Assembly (NCBI RefSeq): GCF_001280425.1
Contig: NZ_LIUF01000010.1
Location: 1-64,000 of the forward strand
DNA: 64,000 nt
From: Haloarcula rubripromontorii
Lineage (GTDB): Archaea; Halobacteriota; Halobacteria; Halobacteriales; Haloarculaceae
Direction of reading: 5' to 3'
Every line of letters begins with the position of its first letter. Position 1 is the stretch's first letter. Below the pieces are notes generated by a model. The model was not told the DNA's origin. It worked only from the letters and a program-made list of their open reading frames with translations, and did no database searches. The position numbers and the translations under genes were made by a program. This document shows positions 10,762-19,765 of the stretch, piece after piece.

Positions 10762-11172
10762 AGGTGACGAGTCATTCAGGATTGACGTTCGGCTTCTCAC
10801 CTCAAGCCCCGCTGAAGCGATCTCATTGAAAATTCAATCGGCAACAGATCATTGAGACTCTAAGGAATATAGAGTGTCAATTCAGACAGACATTCGAGAA
10901 ATCGAGAATAATGGCATTGAGCCGGTCGAAACACGCCACGGTCTCCTCATGCGTCTACTAATCGAGGAGGTCAAGCAAGCGATCGGGCGGTGGCGGCTGG
11001 TTCGATTCACTCATCGGCGCGATGGATATGTAAGTGATTTTCACGACCGGCCGCTTCAATCCGGTGGTTCTGTGCTGGTCTGCGCGCCCTCTCCTGACAG
11101 GGGTATCGACGAACGATGTCGATGCAGACGAGACCGCGGCCACTTCCGTTCCACCGATACAATCGAGAAGTG
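10762..11172. other. Gene-free stretch with two short inverted repeats
   Basis: I see no convincing gene. Inverted repeats ATTGAA-aa-TTCAAT (10825-10838) and ACTCTA...TAGAGT (10857-10875) lie after the DASS gene and could be a terminator or the left end of the insertion sequence whose transposase starts at 11173. An open frame from a GTG at 10874 shows no family features. Confidence 0.4.
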
Positions 11173-12780
11173 ATGTCGGAGACATTAGATCCGCTTTCGA
11201 CCCGTGCCTGCCGGATGACCCACGCCTACAACACAGGAATCGAAATCACTGAGAAGCTGCGAGCTGGTGACTCCCTGCTATCGAGCGTTGTAGATAGCAC
11301 AATCCAGACGGAACACCTCAACGATAACTATCCAGAGTGGCATCCTGCTCCACACTCCTTTCTCGGAATGGATCGGCTCCTCATCTACCGAGAGGCCACA
11401 GGTGAGAGCTATCGAGCGCTGGCTCGGTACCAAGAACTCGCCGAGCCACTCGGTTTGAAACACATCCCTGATGAATCCGTGTTGTCCCGAACGTGGCGTA
11501 AACGCTTCGACGACGGCGTTCGGGAGTTCGTCCAGGTTGCTGCGAACTTCGTTATCAAACAATCTCACGACCGCGAGTTTTCAGCTCCCGCTGTCCGGCC
11601 GAAAGCAGAGATCGTCGACGAAGTGGACCTCTCCACTGATGATGAGACGGCTGGGTGTGAATTCTCCGACAAGCAAATCTACCGGACAACTCGACTCGCT
11701 CGTGATCACGGCTTCGATGAGTTTGATTCCGATCGCGCTGCGAACGCGACCTACGAAGACACGCAGTTCTTCGAATTGCAGACGTTCATGGGAATGGTCA
11801 ACTGCGGGACGCCGCAAGGAGCAGCTCGGTTCCGATATCGACACGGATCGGACAGCAGTCCACACGGCGATACCCATCTTAGAACGATCAAACAGTTTGC
11901 GCCAGGGGAGCTGATCAATGGATTCGATGCAGTGGCTGATCAGCTGCTCTCGGTAATCGAATCCGAAGCATCGTTCCGTCGACCGGTCACAGTTGCGATC
12001 GACATCACGACCGTCCCGTACTATGGCAATGTCGAGGGAATGGTGATGGTCAGCGGACTCAATCATGAAGAGCGAGCGTTCAAATTCGCTACCCTGTCGA
12101 TTGTTGGGCTGAACATCCCACTCATTCTGGCCGTCGAACCTGTCCGAGAGAGTTCAGCGTGGGACGAGAACCCGCCGAACCAGATTCACAGTGTCGTCCG
12201 ACGATTAGTGCGGCGAGCTAGGCAGCACGTTCCAATCGAGACAGTACTCTGCGACCGCGAGTTCGACTCGATGCGTGTCTTTCAGACGTTGTCCAATCTC
12301 GGTGTGAACTACCTCATCCCGAAGCGAATCACCAGTACGGAGAAGGATGTGATCGAGACGATGGAGAGTGATGGAGAAGACGTAGCCGTCGAATCGGCCT
12401 CTGTACACGTTGAGTCGGGAGAGCACTCAATGCAGTTTCTGTACGTCCCGTCGACAAAAGGCGAGGGAACGACTGTCTTCGCCACGAATCTCCGAGTCGG
12501 ACCGGAGGAAGCCGAGTCGTTCTGTCGGCGGTACAGCCGCCGCTGGCAGATCGAAAACGAGTACAAATCCATCAAGAACGACTTTCTCGCGAAGACATCC
12601 TCGAAGGACTACCGCGTGCGCCTGTTCTACTTCGTGTTCGCGGTGCTGCTGTACAATATCTGGCGGCTGACCGACTTTCTGCTGAAAGCGGGTGTCGACA
12701 GCGAGATGGAGTACGCGCCGGTCCTAACCGCAGGTGAGTGTGTTGAGATTGTTGTCTCGGCGTTGATCCCGCCTGACTGA
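11173..12780 (+). CDS. IS4-type DDE transposase
   Basis: From the ATG at 11173 the product is 535 residues. The catalytic triad can be placed: D in TVAIDITTVPYYG, D in VLCDREFDS, and E in YSRRWQIENEYKSIK. The last segment exactly fits the Y-(2)-R-(3)-E-(6)-K signature of the IS4 group. The frame is intact, so the element may be active, but I could not find convincing terminal inverted repeats. It shares architecture with the transposase at 15836 and forms the left boundary of the regulator-halocin cassette. Confidence 0.88.
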   Translation: MSETLDPLSTRACRMTHAYNTGIEITEKLRAGDSLLSSVVDSTIQTEHLNDNYPEWHPAPHSFLGMDRLLIYREATGESYRALARYQELAEPLGLKHIPDESVLSRTWRKRFDDGVREFVQVAANFVIKQSHDREFSAPAVRPKAEIVDEVDLSTDDETAGCEFSDKQIYRTTRLARDHGFDEFDSDRAANATYEDTQFFELQTFMGMVNCGTPQGAARFRYRHGSDSSPHGDTHLRTIKQFAPGELINGFDAVADQLLSVIESEASFRRPVTVAIDITTVPYYGNVEGMVMVSGLNHEERAFKFATLSIVGLNIPLILAVEPVRESSAWDENPPNQIHSVVRRLVRRARQHVPIETVLCDREFDSMRVFQTLSNLGVNYLIPKRITSTEKDVIETMESDGEDVAVESASVHVESGEHSMQFLYVPSTKGEGTTVFATNLRVGPEEAESFCRRYSRRWQIENEYKSIKNDFLAKTSSKDYRVRLFYFVFAVLLYNIWRLTDFLLKAGVDSEMEYAPVLTAGECVEIVVSALIPPD

Positions 12781-13354: not shown

Positions 13355-14134
13355 TTAGCGATCCGGCTCTGCCAACGTCATGCAGGAGTCAGCTTTCGCA
13401 GATTCATACATTTCAGTAGCCCAAGTAAGTGCATTAGGATTAGAATTGATAAGAAAGCAAGAGATGCCGTGATCTTCAAACACGGCAACTCCGGCATAAT
13501 CATCATCGATGAGCCATAGTCCGAAGGGGTAGGTTGAATCAGAGTGATGGAGTCTAAACGAATCGTCAGATTGGATAGTTGATGTTATATCGGTACAAGT
13601 AGTGCGAAGTCGTTTGAGTGCATCACTAGGAATAATGATATCAACTCCGTAAGAGTCAGTTGCAGTGATACAGTCGTAGAATTTCTCAGCGAATAACAGC
13701 ATAACAGCAGGTGTGACGATCCGAACACGGTTTGTACCATCCACGTATCCAAGGATTTTTTCAAACAGGATGTCCGGTGTTGTTGAAGGGGCCTGATAGG
13801 CAGTTGCGCCTATGAGCATGGCTTCGTCAAGCTTTGCGTGAGGTGGCAAGTCGCTTATAACAGGGGAAACAGTCGTGTAATCGTCAAGAGCATCCAAATA
13901 TGTTGCTTGTGCACGTCGGCAGAGGCAGCCGATGTTGGTCGGCCGCCACTTACCGTCTTCGTAGTAGACTAGACCTGCATCACGAAGTTCACCAAGTCCA
14001 CGACTAATTGTTGACCGCGAGCACTCCAGTGTATCAACAAGTACTGATTTCGATTTTGGTGAGGAGTTAATAGTATCGAAGAGTTGAGAACGTTTCGAGA
14101 GGACTTCTGCCACCTGTCTTGGAGGGGGAGACAT
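13355..14134 (-). CDS. Winged-helix transcriptional regulator, haloarchaeal type
   Basis: From the ATG at 14134 the product is 259 residues. Residues about 5-65 form a winged helix (RSQLFDTINSSPKSKSVLVD, SRSTISRGLGELRDAGLV, YYEDGKWRPT), and the rest resembles the C-terminal ligand/oligomerisation domain seen in haloarchaeal MarR/FilR1-like regulators. It is divergent from the halocin C8-like gene at 14407, sharing a 270-bp AT-rich intergenic region, so control of that gene is a reasonable inference. It lies inside the segment between two IS4-type transposases. Confidence 0.8.
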   Translation of the reverse strand: MSPPPRQVAEVLSKRSQLFDTINSSPKSKSVLVDTLECSRSTISRGLGELRDAGLVYYEDGKWRPTNIGCLCRRAQATYLDALDDYTTVSPVISDLPPHAKLDEAMLIGATAYQAPSTTPDILFEKILGYVDGTNRVRIVTPAVMLLFAEKFYDCITATDSYGVDIIIPSDALKRLRTTCTDITSTIQSDDSFRLHHSDSTYPFGLWLIDDDYAGVAVFEDHGISCFLINSNPNALTWATEMYESAKADSCMTLAEPDR

Positions 14135-14406
14135 CAATATCACGTTTGTAGTGTATAATATTTATGACTTGTGTCGTTTTCTTGATTAAGAATTGATAGA
14201 CGTTAATCTGATGATTAGTAGTCTCGAAACCTCACTGAGGTGACCCTAGTCTAGTAAAACAATTTTGTAATCGGAATAACAATCTTTGAAATTATGATTA
14301 TCAGTTGGGGAGGGTTGCTAGTTATTGGGTGAGGTGCCAACAAATGATGATATAGGTGTCCAGTGACATAATTACCACCCCCACCTTGACTTGAATTGGG
14401 TTGAAA

Positions 14407-15323
14407 ATGTCCGAGAAAAATGATGTCGGAGACGCAGAAGCCTACCAAGAAGAACTAAGCGAACAGGTAGAGGATGGGGGAGGCTGTGCAGAAACGTGGG
14501 CTGCTCTTGCTGAAAATAGAGAGAACAACATCTCTCGCCGGTCGGTTCTTCGTGGAGTTGGAGGAACAGCTGGTGTTGCTTTAGCGAATACTGTGGGGAT
14601 CCTCTCTCCTGTGGAAGCCTCTGAAGGAAAATCTCAAGAGACACTAGAGATCGTTGAAGCCAGTAAGGGATTTCAGGCAATTCGGGGTCAGATTCAGTCG
14701 ATTTTAGAGAAGGACGACGCCGTTTCCAATAAAAACAAAGGGGACTATTTCACTTCTCGTAAAGTACAGAAGCCTGACGCAGAGGAAGTATCCTTCCTGA
14801 TCTCAAGTCACACTGGCTCTTTCCAAAATGAAGAGCTAGATGTCGACATATCAGTGGAGATTTCTGCTATGGTTGACGAAAAAAAAAGGTAAAGCAAGTT
14901 AAAGGACTCATCAAACGTAAAGGCGCAGACGAAAAGAAGTATACTTCTATCGCTCACGATTCGTCTGGTCTAGAGCAAGAGAGTGTTACATTCCCAGGAG
15001 AGGATTCATCAAAAAACATTGGGATATTTTCGAACCAAGTTCAGTGTATTCCTTGTAATTATCCTCAATGCGAGTCTACGTGTGTGGCCGTCTGGGATAC
15101 GATCTGCAATAATAAGGCCAAAGAGGAGCTCTGTAGTAATAGTTATACTACCTACGCTGCTTGTCTGATCATTGGCGCCTATGCAAGCGGTCCATATGCT
15201 GCAGCGGCTTGTGGTCTTTTCTTGGCCGCAATCTGTGAAGGGGACATTAGTTGCTTCGACACACCTGAGGCGATGTGTGACGAAGTGGAATCAGCATGTG
15301 GTGACGGCGCGTGGGTCAACTAG
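14407..15323 (+). CDS. Halocin C8-like precursor, split by a -1 frameshift
   Basis: The first frame (14407-14892, 161 residues) has a Tat signal (SRRSVLRGVGGTAGVALA, about residues 41-58) and an acidic, lysine-rich domain. It ends at TAA just after a run of nine A (14879-14887). A one-base slip back at this run continues without a stop to 15323, for 305 residues in total. The second part ends in a 12-cysteine, Gly/Ala-rich domain (CIPCNYPQCESTC ... AAAACGLFLAAIC), which matches the halocin C8 bacteriocin domain in Cys spacing style. In known halocin C8 the N-terminal part of the precursor is the immunity protein and the C-terminal 76 residues the microhalocin. Whether this is programmed slippage, phase variation, a real mutation or a read error cannot be decided here. 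Confidence 0.85.
14879..14887 (+). other. A9 slippery run at the halocin frame change
   Basis: GAC-GAA-AAA-AAA-AGG-TAA in the zero frame becomes GAA-AAA-AAA-AAG-GTA after a -1 slip, joining two long frames that both look coding. Nine A followed by GG is a strong context for polymerase or ribosome slippage. Confidence 0.75.
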
Positions 15324-15407: not shown

Positions 15408-15773
15408 ATGATCAAGTCCAAATGGGCACAAGGTGTTTTGGCACTCACACTTGGTTCTATCAGCGGATTTTACTTCAGTAATGCAACTCAAGAGATGTGG
15501 TTCGGTGGTCTCATTGGGATTGTCGTTGGTGTCTCTGTTTTCGGATTTCTTTCATTTTCCGATTTATTATTTCCTCATCAGAATCTAAATTGGTGGCATT
15601 CTCTATTATCGTTCTTACTCTTAACCGTGATTAGCACCCCACGGGCTACCAGCGTAATCAAGACGACTTCTCTCTATGGGACCATTCTTTTCCTGGCAGG
15701 GGTACTGATCTCAGGAGTTACTATTGGGATTGGTATAGACCGTAACTTCGCTAACGAAAGAGTGGATGAGTAA
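15408..15773 (+). CDS. Small membrane protein downstream of the halocin gene
   Basis: 121 residues with about four hydrophobic helices (around 8-25, 30-50, 62-78, 85-106) separated by short loops; no recognised family. It follows the halocin C8-like gene by 84 bp on the same strand and has the same AT-rich composition. By position it may be an immunity or export partner, which is inference. An intact frame and a strong ATG start support it as real. Confidence 0.7.
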   Translation: MIKSKWAQGVLALTLGSISGFYFSNATQEMWFGGLIGIVVGVSVFGFLSFSDLLFPHQNLNWWHSLLSFLLLTVISTPRATSVIKTTSLYGTILFLAGVLISGVTIGIGIDRNFANERVDE

Positions 15774-15835: not shown

Positions 15836-17509
15836 GTGGTTGCGAGTTGTGACTCACAACGCAGTGTCTTTCGACGGATCGCACAACAGTCATACACTGA
15901 GTGGCCAGCGTATAATTCGACACCACTGTACGACCGGAGTTCACTTGGTGGCCTCGAAGAAGACATCTGGGCCGTTGCCTCCACTTGGTTCGACAACCAG
16001 GCTCACAACTCCGCCGACGAGTTTGCGTCCCATTACCCAGTAGCGTATTTCCAGTTTCGACCACACGACCGGTATTCTGGGGCCACTCAGTACGAGATGG
16101 CTCAACTGTTCCGATTGTTTCTGCTCAAAGAACTTCACGGCTGGACCCACGAAACGCCACTTCTCACATACCTCAGCCACCACCCTGACCTCGGTGAGCA
16201 ACTGGGCTTGGAGAACGTCCCGGACCAGTCGACGCTGTGGCGTACATGGCACGAACGGTTCACTGCGGATCTTCGTGAGACAATTGAGGCAGCCGCCCGG
16301 ACGATTCTGATCAAAGCTGAGGACGCGGGTGTGACTGTCCCTCGTGAACCAGAACGGAAGTTTCCATCTCACGGTGACGACGAGGAACCAGCCCCAGACG
16401 ATCAAGCTATCCTCAACGAAGCGGGATCGATTACCGACCACATCAGCCGCATTGTCTTCCCAGCCTTCTCACTGAAGCGGGACAACGGCTGTGAAATCCA
16501 TGAAAACGCGTATTGGGACTTACAAACGCATCTCGGCCTACGGGAGCGGTTGGCTGCTAACGAAGGAGCTCGCAGTTTCGTCTATGAATCGACCCGGGAC
16601 CGGACACCGCTGGGTCACGCTCATCGCGAGCACATCCGCGACCTCTCTATTGAACAGATTCGGGAGATGTACCGGCGAGCAGTGAATCGATTACTGGATG
16701 AAGTCGCAGAGACGAAAGAGTTCTTCCGAGCTGGGATCGTCGCTATCGATATTACGGAAGCCGACCCGTTTACTGGGGATCGGACGGGTCACGAGGACGA
16801 AATCATCGGCACGAAGGAGAAAACCGACGAGTACGCCTATCAGTGGGCCACTGTTCAACTGGTCGGCAATGCGGTTCCAATCGTATTGGATGCACGGCCT
16901 GTACGAAAAGGCGAATCACGGAAAGAGATAGTTGAGGATCTGCTGGATTCAGCCCAAGACGCCGTTCACGTCGATAACGTACTGATGGATCGAGAGTTCG
17001 ACAGCCAGCACATTCTGGAGATGCTCAGCCAACGAGGGCTTTCGTATGTCGTGCCGAAACGAATGCAGACCAGCGAGAAAGCCCAGGCCAAACGCCTGCT
17101 CCAGCGGGGTCAAGACCGATACGAGACCGACCGGAAACTCCATCTCGGGAAAAACGAGTGGCACGAGACAACGCTGATCTATCGACGAAAGGAGGACTCT
17201 GAGCATAATGATCACCGGCAGTACTCGGTGTTCATGTCGAATCATGGGGGTAGTTTCCTCACCGAGTACGGCTATCGCTGGGAGATCGAGAGCGGATACA
17301 AATCGATCAAGCGGTTCATGGCTGCGACGACGTCGAAAGATTTCGGGCTGCGATTCTTCTATTTCGCGTTTGCGTGCCTGCTGTACTCAATTTGGCGAGC
17401 TGTCGACCTGCTGGTTCAGGTCGAATTGACTGGTGAGTACGAGCATTCGCCGATTGTGACGGCTGATAATACGCTGACGCTGTTGAAGAAGGAAACTGGA
17501 ATCGGGTAG
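15836..17509 (+). CDS. IS4-type DDE transposase
   Basis: 557 residues from a GTG at 15836; the exact start is uncertain. D in IVAIDITEADPFTG, D in VLMDREFDS and E in YGYRWEIESGYKSIK (Y-2-R-3-E-6-K) define an IS4-group catalytic core. It is similar in order and length to the transposase at 11173 but clearly divergent, so the two are not copies of one element. The frame is intact. It closes the right side of the halocin cassette. Confidence 0.87.
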   Translation: MVASCDSQRSVFRRIAQQSYTEWPAYNSTPLYDRSSLGGLEEDIWAVASTWFDNQAHNSADEFASHYPVAYFQFRPHDRYSGATQYEMAQLFRLFLLKELHGWTHETPLLTYLSHHPDLGEQLGLENVPDQSTLWRTWHERFTADLRETIEAAARTILIKAEDAGVTVPREPERKFPSHGDDEEPAPDDQAILNEAGSITDHISRIVFPAFSLKRDNGCEIHENAYWDLQTHLGLRERLAANEGARSFVYESTRDRTPLGHAHREHIRDLSIEQIREMYRRAVNRLLDEVAETKEFFRAGIVAIDITEADPFTGDRTGHEDEIIGTKEKTDEYAYQWATVQLVGNAVPIVLDARPVRKGESRKEIVEDLLDSAQDAVHVDNVLMDREFDSQHILEMLSQRGLSYVVPKRMQTSEKAQAKRLLQRGQDRYETDRKLHLGKNEWHETTLIYRRKEDSEHNDHRQYSVFMSNHGGSFLTEYGYRWEIESGYKSIKRFMAATTSKDFGLRFFYFAFACLLYSIWRAVDLLVQVELTGEYEHSPIVTADNTLTLLKKETGIG

Positions 17510-18426: not shown

Positions 18427-18681
18427 TCATTTTATGTAATTGAGTGTTGAAGTTACCATGTAGCAGAAACAAAAGTATATCGTAAAAAATACCAAATAAA
18501 AAATCACTACGTCCACAATTGTAGAAGCACTATACTGTCGCTGCCATAGAGTGGATAATCTTAGAGTGATAATCCATGTGATAGCTGTAGTGACTATTAT
18601 AACTAAAATTTTTATTGATGAATATTCAAACCGGGTTGTATCAGTCCACACCTCTTTGAATGTGGAAATTATGTTGGGCAT
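18427..18681 (-). CDS. Small membrane protein (cargo of the ISH8-like element)
   Basis: 84 residues, with two or three hydrophobic stretches (about 23-42 and 55-80). No family is recognised. Strongly AT-rich. It lies downstream of, and on the same strand as, the Tat-exported protein at 18760-19524, 78 bp away, so the two may form an operon. The pairing copies the order halocin precursor then membrane protein seen at 14407-15773; an immunity role is only a hypothesis. Confidence 0.55.
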   Translation of the reverse strand: MPNIISTFKEVWTDTTRFEYSSIKILVIIVTTAITWIITLRLSTLWQRQYSASTIVDVVIFYLVFFTIYFCFCYMVTSTLNYIK

Positions 18682-18759: not shown

Positions 18760-19524
18760 TTAGAATGATGGTGGTACGGCATGCATTCCTTCCTCTTTGC
18801 TATACAGCGTCATCTCATCCGTATCGTATTCTTTCCAACCTCCGGTGACATAACAGTACGTGTACGGAGTATCTCCGAAATCCACTTCTTCAAATACTAG
18901 GCTAATATCATCTTCTTCACTTACAAGCGCGAGTGCAGCACCACTGATCATAATGGCTGCAGTGATGCCTGTACTGGTCGCCCAAGAGGCTAATATAGCG
19001 GCAACGGTTGTCCAACCTAAGTTGTTCACTGACTGCTTGAAATCAACACTCAATTTGGCTTTATTATGATTATCATGGCCATGTAGTTCATCGCAATCCC
19101 CGACCTCATCAATGTCTTTGTGTACTCGGTTAATTGCTTCAACTGAATCCTCAATTCCTTGTGGAGAAATTGTATTCGGTTCCCCTAGATAAGATATTTC
19201 CCCCGATTCGTTATTTATTTTTACCTCTTTCACCTTAGTAATAACATCATTTGTCTCTTTCTCTTTCTCTTTCTTTTCTACAGTAACAGTATAAATTGTT
19301 ATTTTCTCACCTTTCTCATTTTCTTTTTCTTCTTCTTCAATATCCTTAGCTATTATTTCATATTCTACTTCTTTAGAACTATATTGTTCTGATTCCTGCT
19401 CATCGTTATCATCGCTAGACTTTGCAGATGCAACCCCGGTTAATCCAGTCATGGACACAAGAGTTGCACCACTAATTCGTAGTACCTCACGCCTATTTGA
19501 TGAAGTATGCTTGTTGGAGGGCAT
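18760..19524 (-). CDS. Tat-exported protein with a C-terminal hydrophobic hairpin (cargo)
   Basis: From the ATG at 19524 the product is 254 residues. SNRREVLRISGATLVSMTG (about 8-26) followed by an Ala-type cleavage region is a Tat signal. Then come a highly charged Glu/Lys segment (about 50-110), a helix-rich part, and a Gly/Ala hydrophobic stretch (TTVAAILASWATSTGITAAI onward, about 170-200), ending in an acidic tail. This resembles secreted pore-forming peptides or halocin precursors in layout, but there are few cysteines and no recognised family. It is AT-rich compared with the rest of the window. Carried inside the ISH8-like element. Confidence 0.65.
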   Translation of the reverse strand: MPSNKHTSSNRREVLRISGATLVSMTGLTGVASAKSSDDNDEQESEQYSSKEVEYEIIAKDIEEEEKENEKGEKITIYTVTVEKKEKEKETNDVITKVKEVKINNESGEISYLGEPNTISPQGIEDSVEAINRVHKDIDEVGDCDELHGHDNHNKAKLSVDFKQSVNNLGWTTVAAILASWATSTGITAAIMISGAALALVSEEDDISLVFEEVDFGDTPYTYCYVTGGWKEYDTDEMTLYSKEEGMHAVPPSF

Positions 19525-19765
19525 ACAAATATCAATTAGATTTGATCTCATAAAGAGATACTTATTCTGACATATAGTAATATATTATTGTGATATTTTG
19601 AGTGTTGGTGTTGTCCTCTCTTTATAAAAGAGTTATAATCAATTCAATATTTCAATAGATTATTCTATTCTTCTTCTTATCCTACTTAATGGCTCTAGTG
19701 GATTACGTGGCAGTTCTAGCTTCAATCTTTAAACTGGGCACGTGAAGCGAGAATCCGCAGATTCC

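What the first reader, a model, noticed from the sequence alone, without database searches (positions are those of the whole stretch)
14407..15323. Halocin C8-like precursor split at an A9 run: programmed or phase-variable slippage?
A 161-residue Tat-signal frame ends right after nine A; a -1 step joins it to an uninterrupted frame that ends in a 12-Cys halocin C8-like domain. In known halocin C8 the N-terminal part is the immunity protein. A slip at A9 would give a mixture of an immunity-only product and the full precursor, which would be an elegant control of toxin dose. A simple indel or a read error is the alternative.
Basis: partly seen in the sequence, partly recalled or inferred. Interest (0 to 1): 0.8.

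Follow-up and report, generated by a model that had tools for sequence, protein, structure and literature searches.

The report
Frame-broken halocin precursor at A-run
A salt-loving archaeon carries a gene for an exported, cysteine-rich peptide that probably kills rival archaea, but its reading frame is broken at a run of nine A; related genes in other species are often broken in other ways, so this is most likely an ordinary off or leaky allele rather than a designed dose switch.

Summary
In detail: a 161-codon Tat-signal frame (14407-14889, stop to 14892), A9 at 14879-14887, and a -1 frame open from 14877 to 15323 with 12 Cys. The frames overlap by only 13 nt, all at the A-run. The gene is a divergent halocin C8-like precursor. 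Its leader (DGGGCAETW..RR) is shared with at least 27 other haloarchaeal loci. An adjacent divergent HTH regulator and a downstream small membrane protein also recur in many of them. The C-terminal domain fits the halocin C8 cysteine spacing but misses the curated model TIGR04449.

The programmed-switch reading is weak. All 22 intact relatives are one frame, with no A-run of this kind. The RNA after the run is not unusually structured. Codon shuffling gives A9 or longer in 27% of trials. The short product stops about 50 residues before the cysteine domain, not at an immunity/toxin boundary. Six of 28 other leader-family loci are broken, by nonsense, indel, truncation or interruption. Assembly error is less likely but not excluded: three other coding A8/T8 runs in this genome are in frame.

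Best reading: a strain-specific indel at a mononucleotide run, possibly leaky because A9 is slippage-prone. Phase variation and recoding remain untested.

The parts
13355..14143 (-). Divergent HTH regulator (HVO_A0261 N-terminal domain + FilR1 middle domain); homologues (20-35% identity) sit next to precursors in other haloarchaea
   Evidence: Pfam PF08350 E 1.9e-20 and PF25213 E 8.1e-11; tblastn to L106 (two), L038/L107, L005, L042/L113, L043, L114, L119, L122, E 1e-9 to 1e-47
14407..14892 (+). Frame-0 ORF, 161 aa: leader with motif DGGGCAETW, Tat signal (SRRSVLRG) and first part of the propeptide
   Evidence: leader homologues E 4.5e-13 over residues 9-97; A1 profile E 6e-25 (the window leader is itself one of the 16 rows)
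14879..14887 (+). A9 run at the frame change; frame-0 reading GAA AAA AAA AGG TAA contains the heptamer A_AAA_AAA
14877..15323 (+). -1 frame: rest of propeptide, then 12-Cys halocin C8-like domain (about 15024-15320)
15408..15773 (+). Small hydrophobic membrane protein, 121 aa, candidate immunity or export partner
   Evidence: ORF; 12 of 23 precursor loci, counting this one, have a small ORF with 2 or more predicted TM segments 15-211 nt 3' of the precursor; no sequence homologue found
11116..12780 (+). ISH3-like transposase upstream of the low-GC block
   Evidence: NF033541 E 9.9e-30, below cut-off; 70-76% identical transposases near halocin-type loci L106, L113/L042, L043
15836..17509 (+). 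Second, different ISH3-like transposase downstream
   Evidence: NF033541 E 2.3e-30, below cut-off; 75-87% identical copies at L106, L119, L125

Best explanation
This is a divergent halocin C8-like precursor gene, acquired with its divergent regulator and a small membrane protein on a low-GC block between two transposases. Its frame was broken by an indel at a long A-run in the middle of the propeptide. Shown: the architecture, the single frame change at A9, the absence of any other visible lesion in the gene, and the absence of the split and run from the intact relatives. Inferred: the strain makes mainly a truncated, probably non-functional 161-residue secreted protein, so the halocin is off. 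Because A9 is prone to polymerase slippage and A_AAA_AAA to ribosomal slippage, a minor amount of full-length precursor may still be made by accident (a 'pseudo-pseudogene'), without being a selected regulatory device.
For: All 22 intact relatives with the same leader run in a single frame into a Cys-rich C-terminus. Six of 28 other leader-family loci are broken by unrelated lesions: TGA at the leader Trp (L093), TGA plus frameshift (L129), frame change and decay (L099), frameshift with truncation (L085), abrupt interruption followed by a transposase (L088), short remnant (L109). The A-run is expected from the Lys-rich stretch: 27% of synonymous shuffles reach A9. RNA after the run is not unusually structured, z -1.41, -0.14, -0.87. 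The short product stops at residue 161 while the Cys domain starts at 214. No species of the genus or other genome searched holds a close relative, which suggests recent acquisition. Frame-broken genes at A9 that slippage can partly restore are described in PMC1088944.
Against: The gene has only one visible lesion, the other two genes of the locus are open, and the lesion lies exactly at one of the four longest A/T runs of the genome, which selection for a switch would also give. With no close relative, neither the ancestral length of the run nor purifying selection on the C-terminal frame could be tested.
Confidence: 0.66

Rival explanations
1. Sequencing or assembly error in the A-run; the gene is in frame in the organism.
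For: A single indel in the longest homopolymer of the gene, with the rest intact; homopolymers are the classical place for such errors.
Against: Three other coding A8/T8 runs of this genome with a testable frame are in frame (L066, L068, L074), so the assembly does not misread such runs systematically. The genome is 18 contigs and 99.99% complete. The sequencing platform is unknown, and three A8/T8 runs are a small control for an A9 run.
Confidence: 0.13
2. Phase-variable contingency locus: replication slippage changes the run length, so cells switch between halocin-on and halocin-off.
For: A mononucleotide run of 9 inside the reading frame of a costly, secreted antagonistic protein; a single-step lesion; no other decay in the locus.
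Against: No relative has a comparable run in the gene (runs of 6-7 at most where listed). The run is explained by codon usage. No second isolate is available.
Confidence: 0.1
3. Programmed recoding (transcriptional slippage on A9 or -1 ribosomal frameshifting on A_AAA_AAA) sets the ratio of a short product to the full precursor.
For: Frame overlap of 13 nt centred on the run; perfect slippery heptamer; A9 drives slippage in Thermus dnaX (PMC1088944); -1 frameshifting at A_AAA_AAC and similar sites is reported for haloarchaeal viruses (PMC5009743, PMC8211752).
Against: Not conserved in any relative; no unusual downstream structure; the short product is cut about 50 residues before the Cys domain; PMC1088944 treats a run conserved among homologues as the sign of purposeful use, which is absent here.
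Confidence: 0.08

Closest known systems
Halocin C8 precursor (ProC8 = HalI immunity part + HalC8; TIGR04449 halocin_C8_dom)
   Same: Tat-type signal, propeptide, then a C-terminal Cys-rich domain with spacing C2C-x(3-8)-C3C7C ... C7C ... C ... C ... C shared with TIGR04449 matches L006, L027, L035 and with L077 of the same genus.
   Different: 12 instead of 10 Cys (two extra in the middle loop); no hit to TIGR04449 even at E 10; long DGGGCAETW leader ahead of the Tat motif, absent from L077; frame broken at A9.
DGGGC-leader Tat precursors of haloarchaea with diverse Cys-rich C-termini (e.g. Halar_0084 on phalar01; Halorubrum trapanicum pCBA1232-01 WP_157746044.1)
   Same: Leader 40-43% identical over about 90 residues, adjacent divergent HTH regulator, small membrane protein downstream.
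   Different: They are single open frames of about 345 codons; their C-terminal domains are of other Cys types.
Frame-broken genes restorable by slippage ('pseudo-pseudogenes', PMC1088944) and archaeal -1 frameshift genes (fucA1 of Sulfolobus, PMC8211752)
   Same: Homologues in one frame; break at a slippage-prone A-run.
   Different: No product evidence here; fucA1 has a putative downstream stem-loop and rare codons, whereas RNA after this run is not unusually structured.

Membership tests
Halocin C8 family (TIGR04449) | Match to the curated domain model | tested here: not met
   No hit of the C part at E <= 10; none in the own genome; hhalign to a 4-sequence HalC8-type profile, probability 1.5%
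Halocin C8 family (TIGR04449) | Cysteine spacing of the mature domain | tested here: met
   Pattern found in the window and in L006, L027, L035; its N-terminal part is absent in 4 other Cys types; 0 of 200,000 shuffles for the full pattern, 975 of 200,000 for the N part (post hoc pattern); independent member L077 fits
Halocin C8 family (TIGR04449) | Tat-exported precursor with N-terminal propeptide and C-terminal mature peptide in one frame | tested here: not met
   Tat motif present (SRRSVLRG in sequence; TIGR01409 E 0.042, below cut-off), but the precursor is in two frames
Halocin C8 family (TIGR04449) | Antihaloarchaeal activity and immunity by the N-terminal part | not testable with these tools
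   needs expression and assay
Programmed -1 ribosomal frameshift | Slippery heptamer X_XXY_YYZ in the zero frame within the ORF overlap | tested here: met
   A_AAA_AAA inside the 13-nt overlap
Programmed -1 ribosomal frameshift | Downstream stimulatory structure | tested here: not met
   z -1.41, -0.14, -0.87 against shuffles; pseudoknots not covered
Programmed -1 ribosomal frameshift | Split and site conserved in homologues | tested here: not met
   22 relatives in one frame, none seen with such a run
Functional transcriptional slippage at A9 | A or T run of 9 or more at the frame junction | tested here: met
   A9 at 14879-14887
Functional transcriptional slippage at A9 | Run length conserved among homologues | tested here: not met
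   No close homologue; distant ones lack the run
Phase-variable contingency locus | Run length differs among cells or isolates | not testable with these tools
   one assembly only; no reads

The most novel reading that the evidence does not exclude
The A9 run is a selected switch (slippage during transcription or translation, or reversible change in run length) that sets how much of a secreted archaeal bacteriocin precursor is made relative to a short secreted leader-propeptide product.
Probability: 0.13. Interest if true: 0.75.

Novelty: new member of a known kind. Interest (0 to 1): 0.3.

Why it matters
If the run were a real switch, it would be an early cellular case of slippage-controlled expression in haloarchaea and a dose control for an archaeal antimicrobial. 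As it stands, the useful results are a new divergent halocin C8-like locus, a leader family that links many different Cys-rich exported proteins, and a base rate (6 of 28) showing that such genes break often, which warns against reading each broken one as programmed.

Tried and rejected
Close relatives: none in 146 genomes of the family, 391 of the class, 170, 125 and 9 of other families, viral contigs, or plasmids, so no dN/dS or ancestral state could be computed. Curated families for the C part: none in Pfam, NCBIfam or PHROGs; PDB by sequence gave only chance hits. Structure prediction of the C part: mean pLDDT 48.8, too poor for a fold search. Profile comparison with the HalC8-type domain: no signal beyond a few residues; pairwise alignments are not clearly better than cysteine-preserving shuffles; against L077, p about 0.04. 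Independent start for the C frame: no ATG/GTG/TTG before the Cys domain. Downstream stimulator: not above shuffles. The review PMC11509114 gives HalI 243 aa, HalC8 76 aa and precursor 283 aa, which do not add up, so I did not use its lengths.

Full report
What is there. On the + strand, an ATG at 14407 opens a 161-codon frame that ends ..SAMVDEKKR with TAA at 14890-14892. Nine A lie at 14879-14887. The -1 frame is open from 14877 to TAG at 15321-15323. The preceding stop of the -1 frame is at 14874-14876, so the two frames overlap by 13 nt and any joining must take place at the run. The joined protein would be 305 residues: an N-terminal extension with DGGGCAETW, a twin-arginine motif SRRSVLRG, a propeptide, and from residue 214 a domain with 12 Cys. 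The C-terminal frame is real coding sequence rather than chance: a base-shuffled C part is stop-free in 3 of 20,000 trials, and 12 Cys was never reached in 5,000 base shuffles. It has no start codon ahead of the Cys domain.

What kind of gene. The leader finds relatives in haloarchaea at 33-53% identity over its first 50-100 residues. A profile of 16 leaders (A1) has invariant G26, C27, E29, W31, R38 and R44-R45. The relatives are Tat-signal precursors of about 270-370 residues with Cys-rich C-termini of several types. Three of them (L006, L027, L035) match the NCBIfam domain TIGR04449 'halocin C8-like', L006 just under its cut-off. The window C part does not, even at E 10. Its cysteine spacing 2-4-3-7-8-9-15-7-5-7-6 fits the halocin C8 layout (for example 2-7-3-7-13-7-7-7-7 in L035) with two extra Cys in the middle loop. 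The pattern was written after seeing the window, which weakens its 0 of 200,000 shuffles, but L077, a TIGR04449 member of the same genus that was not used to make it, fits too. I call it halocin C8-like by layout and not a tested member of the family.

The locus. Upstream and divergent lies an HTH regulator (13355-14143; PF08350, PF25213). Homologues stand next to precursors in at least nine distinct relatives. Downstream lies a 121-aa hydrophobic protein (15408-15773); a small protein with two or more predicted membrane segments lies 15-211 nt 3' of the precursor in 12 of 23 loci examined, counting this one. In some relatives an ABC transporter follows (L038/L107, L111). The block has 43-47% GC in a 56% GC window and sits between two different ISH3-like transposases.

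Does the split look functional? Four tests speak against a programmed device. First, conservation: 22 distinct intact relatives carry the whole protein in one frame, and none of those checked for runs shows one like this. Second, structure: the RNA after the run is not more folded than shuffles (z -1.41, -0.14, -0.87; pseudoknots not tested). Third, the run needs no special cause: with this protein and its own codons, A9 or longer appears in 27% of synonymous shuffles. Fourth, geometry: the frame-0 product stops 52 residues before the first Cys of the C-terminal domain, so it is not the clean propeptide or 'immunity' part. In favour of slippage, the site is physically suitable: A9 drives transcriptional slippage in Thermus dnaX and A9 genes restored by slippage are described (PMC1088944), and haloarchaeal viruses are reported to use A_AAA_AAC-type sites (PMC5009743, PMC8211752). 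Some accidental full-length product is therefore plausible.

Base rate of breakage. Among 28 other loci with the Tat-type leader, six are broken: L093 (TGA in place of the invariant leader Trp), L129 (the same codon TGA plus a frame change), L099 (decayed), L085/L041 (frame change and truncation), L088/L043 (sequence identical to L030 that ends abruptly, with a transposase gene following), and L109 (remnant). Loss of these genes is thus common and uses many kinds of lesion. A single indel at a homopolymer is an ordinary entry in that list.

Error or real? The genome has 3.97 Mb in 18 contigs. It has four distinct A/T runs of 9 or more and ten of 8 or more. Three runs of 8 that lie inside other genes with a testable frame are in frame (L066, L068, L074). 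This argues against systematic homopolymer miscalls but does not exclude a single one. No second isolate or read data could be consulted, and none of the other genomes of the genus has the gene.

Verdict. The most likely reading is a recently broken, possibly leaky allele of a divergent halocin C8-like precursor (0.66), then assembly error (0.13), phase variation (0.10) and programmed recoding (0.08).

Noticed in passing
L093 (minus strand, motif at nt 1561-1578 of the reverse complement) and L129: In two distinct leader-family genes of different genomes the invariant leader Trp (W31 of the profile) is a TGA codon, with the leader and much of the downstream frame still readable.
   Followed up: partly
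G000:C3:11097 (L050), G000:C1:587361 (L051), also L011, L014, L019, L020, L021: Short free-standing ORFs end right after a motif like the precursor leader (DGCGCAEVWEHMSEQR, then stop), without Tat signal or Cys domain; the leader motif thus also exists as a tiny protein of its own.
   Followed up: no
window 18760-19551 (-) and 18427-18681 (-): A second low-GC (33-39%) block nearby encodes a 263-aa Tat-signal protein with a long hydrophobic stretch and an 84-aa membrane protein: possibly another halocin-type pair; no plasmid homologue.
   Followed up: partly
window 11116-12780 and 15836-17509; L106, L042/L113, L043, L119, L125: Transposases 70-87% identical to the two that flank this block also lie near halocin-type loci in other haloarchaeal genomes, suggesting that such loci travel with these elements.
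   Followed up: partly
L111 (G401:C68): Two Tat-signal Cys-rich precursors on one strand with an ABC transporter ATPase and permease between them.
   Followed up: no
L077 (G018:C12:55848-56051): An intact single-frame halocin C8-domain precursor in another species of the same genus, with a plain Tat signal and without the DGGGC leader.
   Followed up: partly
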